A DNA stretch of 41,071 bases from Actinomycetes bacterium (GTDB lineage: Bacteria; Actinomycetota; Actinomycetes; S36-B12; UBA5976), in contig JAKAIC010000007.1 in NCBI GenBank assembly GCA_021814565.1, positions 1-41,071 of the forward strand, given 5' to 3'. The notes under the pieces were generated by a model. The model did not search any database. It was not told the DNA's origin and saw only the letters and a program-made list of their open reading frames with translations. Position numbers and translations under genes: made by a program. Below, one piece after another: positions 15,240 to 40,382 of this stretch; positions within the stretch are counted from its first letter, which is position 1; each line of letters opens with the position of its first letter.

Positions 15240-16322
15240 TCAGCCTTGCTCAAGCCAGGAAACGACGATGTCGGCAATGCGCTCTCCCGCATGGCCGTCC
15301 CACAGGGGAGGTGTGACGTGTGCCGCACCCGGCTCGCGTGCCAAGGCGATTCCGGCTTCCGCTACCAGGTCGGCCACCGTGACCAGGCGGTTTGTGCCGT
15401 GGCTGATGGTGATAGGACGTTCGGTGTTGGGGCGCATGGTGAGACAGGGCACACCGAGGATGGTGGTCTCCTCCTGCACACCACCGGAGTCGGTGAGCAC
15501 CAGAGCGGAGCCCCGCACCATGGCAATGAATTCGAGATAGCCCAGCGGATCCATGAGGTGGATGCCCGGATGGCCTTCGATGCCTGCCTCCACCAGATTG
15601 GCTCGGCCGCGCGGATGCAGGGGAATGTAGATCGGTACCAGATCCGCCACCCCGTGCAGTGCTGTGACCAACACGCGCACTGCGTCCAGCGAATCCACAT
15701 TGGCGGGACGATGCAGGGTTGCGACCGCATAGCGATCGGGCAGCGCGAACTCGGTACGCACACCCGCAGGATCCAACTTGTCGAGGCTGGACAGCAGGGT
15801 GTCGATCATTGGATTGCCGACGAAGTGCATCCTGGCGGTGTCCATGCCCTCATGGGCGAGGTGACCGATGGCTTCCGGGCTGGTGACGAAGAGCAGGTCG
15901 CAGAGCTGGTCGGTGACCCGGCGGTTGATCTCCTCAGGCATGGTCATGTCGAAACTGCGCAGGCCCGCTTCCACGTGCGCCATGGGGATCTGCAGCTTGG
16001 AGGCCAGCAGCGCCGCCGCGACTGTGGAGTTGATGTCGCCGTAGACCATGACCAGCGCCGGTCGCTCTGCGAGGAAGGCCTGCTCCAGTGCCACCATGAT
16101 GTTGGCCGTCTGCACGGCATGCGAACCGGATCCCACCCCCAGGTTGATATCCGGCCGCGGCAGGTCCAGCTGCCTGAAGAAGACCTCGCTCATGCGGTCG
16201 TCGTAATGCTGACCGGTGTGTATGAGGCGCTGCTGCACGCCCCGCGCTGCCAGGGCCTTCCAGACCGGGCCCACCTTGGGGAAATTGGGACGGGCGCCAG
16301 TGACATGGACGACGAGCTGCAT
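15240..16322 (-). CDS. wecB: UDP-N-acetylglucosamine 2-epimerase, non-hydrolysing
   Basis: The 360-aa GT-B-fold enzyme interconverts UDP-GlcNAc and UDP-ManNAc. Family motifs are GARPNFPKVGPVWKAL, HTGQHYDDRMSEVFF, MVYGDINSTVAA, HVEAGLRSFDMTMPEE, the active-site TDSGGVQEE and MRPNTERPITISHGTNRLV. It is the first gene of the envelope-polymer operon, 65 nt upstream of the dehydrogenase. A TAGGCT hexamer lies 7 nt before the ATG with no SD sequence, so the operon probably starts here with a nearly leaderless mRNA. Confidence 0.93.
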   Translation of the reverse strand: MQLVVHVTGARPNFPKVGPVWKALAARGVQQRLIHTGQHYDDRMSEVFFRQLDLPRPDINLGVGSGSHAVQTANIMVALEQAFLAERPALVMVYGDINSTVAAALLASKLQIPMAHVEAGLRSFDMTMPEEINRRVTDQLCDLLFVTSPEAIGHLAHEGMDTARMHFVGNPMIDTLLSSLDKLDPAGVRTEFALPDRYAVATLHRPANVDSLDAVRVLVTALHGVADLVPIYIPLHPRGRANLVEAGIEGHPGIHLMDPLGYLEFIAMVRGSALVLTDSGGVQEETTILGVPCLTMRPNTERPITISHGTNRLVTVADLVAEAGIALAREPGAAHVTPPLWDGHAGERIADIVVSWLEQG

Positions 16323-16354: not shown

Positions 16355-16415
16355 CGCTTCACCGGCTGAACTCACGCGACACGCCGTGCGTCGCGTGAGT
16401 TCAGCCGGTGAAGCG
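16355..16415. repeat. Perfect 26-bp inverted repeat with 9-nt loop (REP-like element, copy 1)
   Basis: Arms 16355-16380 and 16390-16415 are perfect reverse complements around the loop ACGCCGTGC. The element lies between the rlmB stop and the wecB promoter, both minus-strand genes, and could stop rlmB transcription although no T-tract follows. A related element with the same outer ends (CGCTTCACCGG / GGTGAAGCG) and the same loop core lies at 38647-38707, so this is a repeat family rather than a one-off terminator. Confidence 0.85.
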
Positions 16416-16421
16416 TGATCA

Positions 16422-16455
16422 GGGGTGGGGTGGGGTGGGTGAGACTGGGTGGGGG
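16422..16455 (+). other. G-run cluster with G-quadruplex potential
   Basis: Six runs of 3-5 G (GGGG, GGGG, GGGG, GGG, GGG, GGGGG) are separated by 1-7 nt on the plus strand, starting 6 nt after the 26-bp inverted repeat and ending 2 nt before the rlmB stop codon. Transcripts of the flanking minus-strand genes would be C-rich here, so a quadruplex could form only in the DNA template strand. Confidence 0.5.
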
Positions 16456-16457
16456 TG

Positions 16458-17417
16458 TCAGCGACGGGCGACGGCCACTGAGTAGAGCGCAACGCTGGCT
16501 GCCACCGATGCGTTCAACGACTCGGTGCCGCCGATCATGGGGATCGATACGACGACATCGCAGGTCTCGGTGACCAGCCGGGACAAGCCCTTGCCCTCGG
16601 AGCCGATGACGATCACCACCGGTCCGCGCGCCAGTTCCACGTCGAGATCGGGAAGCTGCGTCTGGCCATCGGCCGCCAGGCCCACCACGAAACAGCCGGC
16701 CTTCTTGTAGGCCTGCAGTGCACGCGTCAGGTTGACCGCCTTGGCCACCGGCGTGCGGGCAGCCGCACCCGCCGAGGTACGCCAGGCGACGGCCGTCATG
16801 TCCGCGCTGCGGCGCTCCGGTACCACCACGCCGGCGGCACCGAAGGCGCCGGCCGAACGCACGATGGCACCAAGATTGCGTGGATCGGTGACGCCGTCGA
16901 GCGCGATGATCAGCGGATTGCGCCCACCCCTGCTGAGCAGGTCACTGGGATCCGCGTACTCATAGGGGCGCACCGTGAGTGCAACCCCCTGATGCAACTC
17001 CACCCCGGTGATGCGATCCATCTCATGACGCGAGATCTCCAGTACCGGAAGCCCGGAATCTCCTGCAGTGGCAAGGATTTCCCGCACGCGGTCGTCGTAG
17101 TCGATGCCCGTTGCGATGTGCAGTCGCAGAGCTGGCACGTTGGCGCGCAGGGCTTCAACAATGGGATTGCGACCCACCACGATGTCCGAGGTGTCGCGAC
17201 GACGCGAGGGCGACTGGCCGTTGCTGATGCGACCGCGGGATGGTGCAGCGGCACGCTTGGCAGCCTTCTGCGCCGGGCTGCCCGGGCGATCAGCGGCCTT
17301 GGGCGTGGGGCCCTTGCCTTCCAGACCGCGCCGCCGCTGACCGCCGGAACCGACGGTGGGTCCTTTGCGCGAGGCGCCCTTGCGTACAGCACCGCGCCGC
17401 TGCGAATTGCCTGCCAT
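16458..17417 (-). CDS. rlmB: 23S rRNA (guanosine-2251 2'-O)-methyltransferase RlmB
   Basis: The 319-aa SPOUT methyltransferase has a basic, low-complexity N-terminal tail (about 1-80, rich in R, K, G), a substrate-binding domain starting [11 protein letters not shown], and the trefoil-knot motifs ITDP-like [28 protein letters not shown] and [17 protein letters not shown] that bind SAM. The enzyme methylates the ribosomal peptidyl-transferase loop; in this family the target is G2251. The ATG overlaps the cysS stop by one base (TAATG), and the cysS-rlmB order is the usual actinobacterial one. Confidence 0.92.
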
Positions 17418-23017: not shown

Positions 23018-23042
23018 GAAACAGGGCAAAACGCCCTATTTC
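23018..23042 (-). terminator. Possible hairpin terminator bordering the repeat array
   Basis: A 10-bp stem with one G-U pair (GAAATAGGGC / GCCCTGTTTC on the minus strand) and loop GTTTT lies directly beside the array. It could end transcripts coming through regX3, but the following sequence is not T-rich. Confidence 0.35.
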
Positions 23043-23043
23043 A

Positions 23044-23347
23044 CCCCTCGAATTTGTGTTCGCGCTTCGCGCTCAACAAATCCTCGTCGCTCGGGCAAGA
23101 CGAGCAAGCTCGTGCTGCACCCCTCGAATTTGTGTTCGCGCTTCGCGCTCAACAAATCCTCGTCGCTCGGGCAAGACGAGCAAGCTCGTGCTGCACCCCT
23201 CGAATTTGTGTTCGCGCTTCGCGCTCAACAAATCCTCGTCGCTCGGGCAAGACGAGCAAGCTCGTGCTGCACCCCTCGAATTTGTGTTCGCGCTTCGCGC
23301 TCAACAAATCCTCGTCGCTCGGGCAAGACGAGCAAGCTCGTCTTGCC
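23044..23347. repeat. Tandem array of four 76-bp units
   Basis: Units start at 23044, 23120, 23196 and 23272. Units 1-3 look identical, and unit 4 matches for 70 nt before changing to CTTGCC at the regX3 side. Each unit contains inverted repeats (ATTTGT...ACAAAT around GCGC-rich arms; CTCGTC...GACGAG; ACGAGC-AA-GCTCGT), so a transcript could fold into a hairpin chain. Each begins CCTCGAATTTGT, which is also the 3' end of the regX3 reading frame at 23355-23366. There are no spacers, so this is not a CRISPR array. As 76 is not a multiple of three, it cannot encode a repeated peptide. Confidence 0.93.
23322..23347 (-). terminator. Hairpin just after the regX3 stop codon
   Basis: A perfect 12-bp inverted repeat (GGCAAGACGAGC / GCTCGTCTTGCC, 2-nt centre) begins 2 nt after the regX3 stop. 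No T-tract follows, so it may be an RNA end-protecting hairpin or part of the repeat element rather than a classical terminator. Confidence 0.5.
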
Positions 23348-38646: not shown

Positions 38647-38707
38647 CGCTTCACCGGCAGTTCTTGCGCGACACGCCGTGTTTTCAGTGAGTTCCGGCGG
38701 TGAAGCG
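38647..38707. repeat. REP-like inverted repeat, copy 2
   Basis: The same outer ends as copy 1 (CGCTTCACCG / CGGTGAAGCG, a perfect 10-bp stem) and the same loop core GCGACACGCCGTG, but the inner stem has diverged and no longer pairs fully. It lies between the convergent lipoprotein and glnR genes and may serve as a bidirectional terminator. Confidence 0.75.
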
Positions 38708-38716
38708 GGATGGGGA

Positions 38717-39424
38717 TCAAGCGATGGTGGAGGACTGGCGGGTCTGCTCGGTCTCGAAGCGGTAGCCCACGTTGCGCACGGTGCCGATGAGGTTCTCGAA
38801 GTCACTGCCCAGTTTCATGCGCAGCCGACGCACGTGCACATCGACGGTGCGCGTGCCACCGAAGTAGTCATAGCCCCAGACCTCCTGCAGCAACTGGGCG
38901 CGCGAGAACACGCGCCCGGGGCTGCTGGCCAGGAACTTCAGGAGCTCGAACTCCTTGAACGTGAGGTCAAGCGCGCGACCGTGAAGCTTGGCCGTGTAGG
39001 TGGCCTCATCGATGACAAGTTCACCATGACGGATCTCCTCCGTGGACTCGGAGCCGTTGTTGCCGGCCATGGCCAGCTGCCTGCCCAGAGCCAGGCGGAT
39101 GCGGGCGTCGACCTCCGCCGGACCAGCGGTGTCGAGCAGAACATCGTCGATACCCCAGTCCGCGGAAACGGCCGCCAGCCCTCCCTCGGTGGCGATGAGG
39201 ACGATGTTGTTGTCGATGCCGGTGGTGCGGACGAGCCGGCACAGCGAACGTGCTGCGGCCAGGTCGCGGCGACCGTCGACCAGCACGATGTCCGACGCCG
39301 GCGCACTGACAAGTGCGGAGACCTCCGGGGGCAGCACTCGCACCTTGTGTGTGAGCAGTGCAAGCGCGGGCAGCACCTCGGTGGAGAGGGTCATGGCGCG
39401 AGTCAACAACAGCAGCTCAGCCAT
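38717..39424 (-). CDS. glnR: GlnR-family atypical response regulator
   Basis: The 235-aa regulator opens [20 protein letters not shown] and contains VDGRRDL with D50, [20 protein letters not shown] and a winged-helix domain ([51 protein letters not shown]), an end-to-end match to actinobacterial GlnR. GlnR controls nitrogen metabolism without a partner kinase; the D50 pocket is kept for structure in known members. The ATG at 39424 is preceded by AAGAGGTGG. The longer frame to 39760 runs through the duplicated prepilin peptidase tail and is rejected. A 9-bp inverted repeat lies upstream. Confidence 0.93.
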
Positions 39425-39442
39425 ACCCACCTCTTGAACACA

Positions 39443-39487: not shown

Positions 39488-39510
39488 GGCTGAACAATAG
39501 CGGAGTCCGG

Positions 39511-39718
39511 TCCCTGGACGGCGAGCCGCGCCTCGAAGAAGACACTGAGTGGCAGCCGCAGGAAGGCGCCCAGCAGCATGAAGGGCCCGAAGGGAATCGT
39601 GTCCTTGCGGCCAGTCCCTAGACCGCGAGCAGCGCCTCGAAGAAGGCACCCAGTGGCAGCACCAGGAAGGCGCCCAGCAGCATGAAGGGCCCGAAGGGAA
39701 TCGTGTCCTTGCGGCCGG
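39511..39718. repeat. 104-bp tandem duplication at the prepilin peptidase 3' end
   Basis: Copy B (39511-39614) and copy A (39615-39718) align with nine mismatches by hand. Copy A encodes the C-terminus of the peptidase including [16 protein letters not shown]; copy B repeats it downstream of the stop. The stop TAG in copy A (39620-39618) corresponds to CAG in copy B. As 104 is not a multiple of three, copy B is in another frame relative to the gene. Confidence 0.92.
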
Positions 39719-40382
39719 TCCTGCGTGACGCCAGCAGCGCCGCAGACAGGGCGCCGCCACTCATGAAGCCCAGCGCCGTGGCACCCACCACGTAGGCCCA
39801 GCCCAGGTACCCCGTGAGGGCACCGATACTGAGCGCAAGTTTCACATCGCCCATACCCATACCGCCACGCGTGAGCAGGTTCATCAGGAAGTACAGGACG
39901 AACAACGCCACGGCTCCCAGGAAGGCGCCCTGAAGCGCGGCCGGACTGTGGAAGCCCGCGTCCGCAGCCGCCAACAGCAGGGCCACTCCCGCCGCGGGCA
40001 GCGTCAGCACATCGGGAAGGCGTTTGTGGTCGACATCGATGAACCACAGGGCCGCGGCCACAGGCACGAAAAGCAGCCAGGCGATGGCGAAGATACTGGG
40101 GAGCGGCGTGGTGACGACGGCCACGGTAAGCAGTACGCAAAGCAATTCCACCTGCAGGCGACGCGCACCGGGGCTGGTGCCGCACACCCGACAGCGACCG
40201 CGCCGGACCATCCACCCCACCACGGGGAACTGCGCGTGCCAGCCCAGTGGCGCAGCGCAGGTGCCGCATCGGAGCTTGCCCCGCAACGGTTCCTGCTCGG
40301 GCACGCGTTCGATGAGCAACTGCGCGAACCACGACACCGCAGTGCCGTAGACGACCGCGATCAACAGTGCCTGCCAGGTCAT
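39618..40382 (-). CDS. Prepilin peptidase (A24 family, PilD/ComC-type)
   Basis: The 254-aa membrane aspartic protease has cytosolic zinc-type CxxC pairs (C39/C42, C64/C67), catalytic Asp in [11 protein letters not shown] (near 116-118) and GMGMGDVK (D179), and about seven membrane helices. It cleaves, and may N-methylate, type IV prepilin-like leaders. No pilin or Tad genes are in the window. The ATG at 40382 is chosen for an AGGAGG 4 nt upstream. The C-terminal 35 residues lie in the tandem duplication, so the present stop may be secondary. Confidence 0.92.

What the first reader, a model, noticed from the sequence alone, without database searches (positions are those of the whole stretch)
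16355..16415. Perfect 26-bp inverted repeat belonging to a dispersed family
A 61-nt element with fully complementary arms lies between rlmB and wecB. A second element of the same length at 38647-38707 has the same ends and the same loop core (GCGACACGCCGTG), but its inner arms no longer pair. Conservation of the loop and outer ends over the inner stem is unlike a simple terminator and suggests a REP-like or transposase-mobilised palindrome, or a protein or RNA binding site.
Basis: seen in the sequence. Interest (0 to 1): 0.58.

Follow-up and report, generated by a model that had tools for sequence, protein, structure and literature searches.

The report
Dispersed terminator-like DNA hairpin family
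A 61-letter DNA hairpin repeated nine times in this actinobacterial genome, and about 32 times at other sites in its sister species, belongs to a wider actinobacterial group of fixed-length hairpins that usually sit right behind genes and probably stop transcription, but which in this genus have scattered through the genome like a REP repeat.

Summary
The palindrome at 16355-16415 (26 perfect pairs) is one of nine 61-nt copies in this genome. The sister species has about 32 copies of 62 nt. Length, ends (CGCTTCAC/GTGAAGCG) and apex (CGACACGCCGTG) are constant. The stem between them differs completely but still pairs: 13 of 29 pairs show compensatory changes. Nearly all distinct sister-species cores are near-perfect 29-bp hairpins with a GCN triloop and an unpaired A/T on the 3' arm. 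The copy at 38647 is a decayed member. Both window sites are empty at the syntenic places in the sister genome, so copies move or turn over. No RAYT-type transposase and no target duplications were found. Hairpins with the same apex and unrelated stems occur in many Actinomycetes. A genome that looks mycobacterial has at least 76 such hairpins, nearly all 52 nt between anchors and mostly 4-20 nt behind gene ends; 7 of 50 carry GACACGCC at exactly the same position. Best reading: a genus-specific, dispersed branch of an actinobacterial terminator-like hairpin class, probably the one behind the M. tuberculosis TRIT motif. Terminator function is inferred; the means of spread is unknown.

The parts
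16355..16415 (+). 61-nt hairpin element, copy 1 (26 perfect pairs); strand given by the asymmetric apex GACACGCC
16355..16362 (+). conserved left end CGCTTCAC (pairs with 16408-16415 GTGAAGCG)
   Evidence: invariant apart from one one-base exception among the 32 distinct copies
16408..16415 (+). conserved right end GTGAAGCG
16363..16375 (+). left half of the variable, self-pairing mid-stem (partner 16395-16407)
   Evidence: compensatory changes within and between species
16395..16407 (+). right half of the variable, self-pairing mid-stem
16378..16385 (+). apical motif GACACGCC, shared with hairpins of other Actinomycetes that have unrelated stems
38647..38707 (+). 61-nt hairpin element, copy 2, decayed inner stem, between convergent genes (15 and 9 nt from the two gene ends)
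38670..38677 (+). apical motif GACACGCC of copy 2
   Evidence: by position
15240..16322 (-). wecB-type UDP-GlcNAc 2-epimerase gene; its start is 32 nt from copy 1
   Evidence: Pfam Epimerase_2
16458..17417 (-). rlmB-type SpoU rRNA methylase gene; its 3' end is 42 nt from copy 1
   Evidence: Pfam SpoU_methylase
38717..39430 (-). GlnR-like response regulator gene; its 3' end is 9 nt from copy 2
   Evidence: Pfam GlnR_1st and Trans_reg_C

Best explanation
The element is one copy of a genus-specific, dispersed family of fixed-length (61-62 nt) hairpins. The family is a branch of a wider actinobacterial class of roughly 60-nt terminator-like hairpins with a shared apical motif (CGACACGCCG). Where a copy lies behind a gene, the transcribed hairpin most likely ends or protects the 3' end of the transcript, on either strand because it is palindromic. 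Copy 2 would then be a bidirectional terminator between convergent genes, and copy 1 would separate the rlmB transcript from wecB. In this genus the hairpin has also spread to new intergenic sites regardless of gene direction, by a mechanism not identified. Shown: copies, fixed length, conserved ends and apex, compensatory stem changes, empty syntenic sites, relatives behind stop codons across the class. Inferred: termination, and recognition of the apex or bulge by a factor.
For: Nine copies here, about 32 in the sister species. On 20 distinct sister cores 95.5% of cells pair, 13 of 29 pairs have double changes, covariation score 0.307 against 0.076 in shuffles (0/500), and slid controls fall to 32-46% paired. 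Folds show a near-constant GCN triloop and a bulged A or T on the 3' arm. The same apex with unrelated stems appears in other families of the order and class. In an apex-blind set of 50 mycobacterial-type hairpins, 44 are exactly 52 nt and 7 have GACACGCC, all at position 19 (shuffle mean 0.04, max 2 in 2000 shuffles). Class relatives lie about 8-40 nt behind the 3' ends of Pfam-supported genes, several between convergent genes. Most of the 15 copies read in the mycobacterial-type genome lie 4-20 nt behind a called gene end. All nine own-genome copies adjoin at least one gene 3' end.
Against: There is no U-tract after the hairpin and no terminator was predicted around copy 1. In the sister species placement matches background: 7 convergent, 13 tandem, 8 divergent, against 15, 44 and 22 for all gene pairs with gaps of at least 80 nt, and several divergent sites have Pfam-supported genes on both sides, where a terminator makes little sense. 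Other strong hairpins, possibly the true terminators, sit beside some copies. There are no expression data. The published TRIT consensus could not be read here.
Confidence: 0.5

Rival explanations
1. A REP- or MITE-like mobile palindrome moved in trans by a transposase or recombinase that recognises the folded single strand (ends, bulged A/T, GCN loop), with no transcriptional role of its own.
For: Empty syntenic sites in the sister genome. Seven sister copies with the same core apart from one loop base but different flanks suggest recent spread. Random gene orientation in the sister species. Strand-defining asymmetry with an unpaired A/T. No G-U pairs in the intact sister-species folds, which fits a DNA hairpin better than an RNA one.
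Against: No Y1/RAYT domain in either genome, one IS110 gene here and none in the sister, no target duplications, no transposase among the annotated neighbours. Relatives in other families sit tightly behind stop codons.
Confidence: 0.3
2. A binding site for a chromosome-organising or regulatory protein that reads the conserved ends and apex, possibly in cruciform form.
For: Two conserved sequence blocks separated by a stem that is free in sequence, with constant spacing.
Against: A double-strand binding site would not need the mid-stem to stay self-complementary. Most excess end motifs are accounted for by the paired copies. Positions are not conserved.
Confidence: 0.1
3. The arms stay complementary by mutation alone (hairpin template switching corrects one arm from the other) and the hairpins have no function.
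For: Near-perfect Watson-Crick arms with no G-U pairs in intact sister copies. Other palindrome families in the genus look equally perfect.
Against: Change is mostly confined to pairs 12-20 while ends and apex stay fixed. The bulge and exact length persist, which correction should erase.
Confidence: 0.08

Closest known systems
TRIT (M. tuberculosis Rho-independent terminator motif; Gardner et al. 2011, RNIE)
   Same: From general knowledge: a conserved structured motif enriched near gene ends in M. tuberculosis. Here a mycobacterial-type genome has at least 76 fixed-length hairpins, those read lying mostly just behind genes, some with the same apex as the window element.
   Different: The window family has a different outer stem and, in the sister species, ignores gene ends. 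The TRIT consensus itself was not available for comparison; PMC3526491 only cites the model.
REP / BIME elements with RAYT (TnpA-REP) transposases
   Same: Short intergenic palindromes in many copies, non-syntenic, strand-asymmetric.
   Different: No RAYT in either genome. The ends here are CGCTTCAC. Longer, about 61 nt, with a variable but paired stem.
MITEs (for example NEMIS/Correia elements)
   Same: Small dispersed inverted-repeat elements.
   Different: No target-site duplication and no matching autonomous element found; the apex rather than only the termini is conserved.
Integron attC sites
   Same: Works-like only: folded hairpin with extrahelical bases on one arm and a stem free in sequence.
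   Different: The apex is conserved here, whereas attC loops vary; neighbours are housekeeping genes, not cassettes. attC boxes were not searched for with a model.

Membership tests
TRIT-like actinobacterial terminator hairpin | roughly 60-nt strong hairpin | tested here: met
   61 nt, 26 pairs, -55 kcal/mol
TRIT-like actinobacterial terminator hairpin | location just behind gene 3' ends | tested here: inconclusive
   own genome 9 of 9 next to a 3' end, but zero divergent of nine is not significant against about 22% background; sister species at background
TRIT-like actinobacterial terminator hairpin | match to the published TRIT covariance model | not testable with these tools
   paper and model not held; no Rfam family matches
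TRIT-like actinobacterial terminator hairpin | terminates transcription | not testable with these tools
   needs Term-seq or a reporter
classical intrinsic terminator | U-tract after the stem | tested here: not met
REP element | cognate RAYT (Y1_Tnp) in the genome | tested here: not met
   PF01797 absent from both genomes, control genomes positive; both are draft genomes, 98% and 89% complete
REP element | dispersed, intergenic, non-syntenic palindrome | tested here: met
MITE | target-site duplication | tested here: not met
MITE | related autonomous transposon with the same ends | tested here: inconclusive
   few unpaired half-sites; their surroundings were not examined

The most novel reading that the evidence does not exclude
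Actinomycetes share a modular hairpin: genus-specific ends, a mid-stem free in sequence but kept paired, an unpaired A/T on one arm, and a class-wide apical motif CGACACGCCG that an unknown factor reads. In this genus that terminator-like hairpin has become a spreading repeat moved without a RAYT.
Probability: 0.25. Interest if true: 0.75.

Novelty: new variant of a known kind. Interest (0 to 1): 0.5.

Why it matters
Terminator loops are not expected to be conserved, yet the same apical motif recurs at a fixed position inside hairpins with unrelated stems across the class. That makes a testable claim that something reads the apex. The contrast between gene-end placement in relatives and scattered placement in the sister species gives a natural case of a terminator-like hairpin turning into a dispersed repeat, or of one element playing both parts.

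Tried and rejected
RAYT/Y1 transposase: absent in both genomes. IS110: one gene here, none in the sister, so not a shared mobiliser. Target duplications: none. Rfam: no match at gathering score and only a chance-level microRNA hit at E 0.64. Viral origin: six end-pattern hits in viral contigs were not followed up; sixteen apex hits were folded and one pair of viral contigs shows a terminator-like hairpin, probably chance. No phage BLAST match with the mycobacterial-type query and no plasmid BLAST match with the window copy. Exact-end pattern over 84,980 species: apart from the sister genome the strongly folding hits held one hairpin with another apex (L048), and the rest did not fold strongly. 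Exact apex counts in the order outside this genus are about the same as for the reversed control pattern; only the hairpin context is informative. A pooled gene caller on mixed class loci gave unreliable strands and was replaced by Pfam checks. Literature searches for the sequence found nothing relevant.

Full report
OBSERVATION. The palindrome at 16355-16415 is exactly as described: 61 nt, 26 contiguous complementary pairs, loop of 9; about 3e-9 expected by composition in the window. The element at 38647-38707 has the same length, ends and core with a broken inner stem. Pattern and covariance searches of the whole draft genome (1,995,058 bases, 156 contigs) give nine copies, all 61 nt.

SISTER SPECIES. 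The only other genome of the genus among the relatives searched has about 32 copies, 62 nt long (two sites on C38 are inferred from paired half-sites at the right spacing and were not read). The ends CGCTTCAC/GTGAAGCG and the apex GCGACACGCCGTG are shared, but the 13-bp stem between them is wholly different and still pairs.

STRUCTURE. On 20 distinct sister cores, 95.5% of cells pair, 13 of 29 pairs carry changes on both sides, and the covariation score is 0.307 against 0.076 in shuffles, with 0 of 500 reaching it; sliding the partners drops pairing to 32-46%. Changes concentrate in pairs 12-20. Folding shows a GCN triloop and an unpaired base on the 3' arm, A or T, at positions 37-45, with no G-U pairs in the intact copies. 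An even length with a three-base loop forces one unpaired base, so the informative points are its arm and identity. In this genome the 3' arm usually has two unpaired bases, or the apex is mismatched.

PLACEMENT AND MOBILITY. Both window sites are empty at the syntenic places in the sister genome although the flanking genes align. Seven sister copies have the same core, apart from one loop base, with different flanks. No target duplication was detected. Element orientation relative to genes is mixed. In the sister species 7 copies lie between convergent, 13 between tandem and 8 between divergent genes, against a background of 15, 44 and 22; several divergent cases have Pfam-supported genes on both sides. 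In this genome all nine adjoin a gene 3' end (genes). No Y1 transposase was found in either genome and annotated neighbours are ordinary genes. Gene calls away from the Pfam-checked loci come from a simple codon-usage script and are approximate.

RELATIVES. A model of the sister copies found two identical 64-nt hairpins with the same apex and an unrelated stem in another family of the order. An apex search of 166 genomes gave no overall excess over the reversed control, but three further genomes held long hairpins or a half-hairpin around it. A generic-stem model, built from an alignment in which I removed bulged bases by hand, found hairpins with the apex in several more families of the class. 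That search is biased towards the apex, so I used an apex-blind test: 50 hairpins with ends GCAGACGCA/TGCGTCTGC listed from one genome (76 by count), 44 of them exactly 52 nt; 7 contain GACACGCC, every time at position 19, against a shuffle mean of 0.04. That genome is taken to be mycobacterial because its hairpin matches only a Mycobacterium plasmid in the plasmid collection; the record was not fetched.

GENE ENDS. Class-level relatives lie roughly 8-40 nt behind stop codons of Pfam-supported genes, with clear convergent pairs at L249, L256, L262 and L269. In the mycobacterial-type genome most of the 15 copies read lie 4-20 nt behind a called gene end. This is terminator territory. TRIT, from general knowledge a conserved structured motif near M. 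tuberculosis gene ends, is the closest named thing; the paper is not held and a held paper only cites its model.

VERDICT. A dispersed, genus-specific branch of an actinobacterial terminator-like hairpin class, with a conserved apex and a stem kept paired but free in sequence. Termination is inferred from placement and structure; the spreading mechanism is open.

Noticed in passing
window 23042-23341: Perfect tandem array, 76-bp unit, 3.9 copies at 100% match; a period not divisible by three.
   Followed up: no
window 39510-39721: Two tandem copies of a 104-bp unit, 91% match, near the GlnR-like gene.
   Followed up: no
window 16420-16456: G-rich tract (GGGGTGGGGTGGGGTGGGTG...) right after copy 1, with C-rich sequence on the other side; other copies here have similar C-rich/G-rich flanks. 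Possible G-quadruplex.
   Followed up: partly
L153:118-182, L156:9930-9990, L166:2945-3007: Second palindrome family in this genome (GCCGACGGCTCC-NNNNN-GGGGCCTTC) with a 5-bp mid-stem block replaced yet still paired.
   Followed up: partly
L041:5353-5420, L164:5708-5775: Third palindrome family, 68 nt, with compensatory stem changes and its own conserved apex.
   Followed up: partly
L019, L023, L053, L061, L066, L109, L134: At least three further long palindrome families in the sister genome (CGTTCCGGTTTC.., GATCTGTTGTTTCGGGCCC.., CTAGGACTCAGAACGGG..).
   Followed up: no
G464 hairpins: A second recurring apex type, ATTTCGNNNCGAAAT, among the mycobacterial-type hairpins.
   Followed up: no
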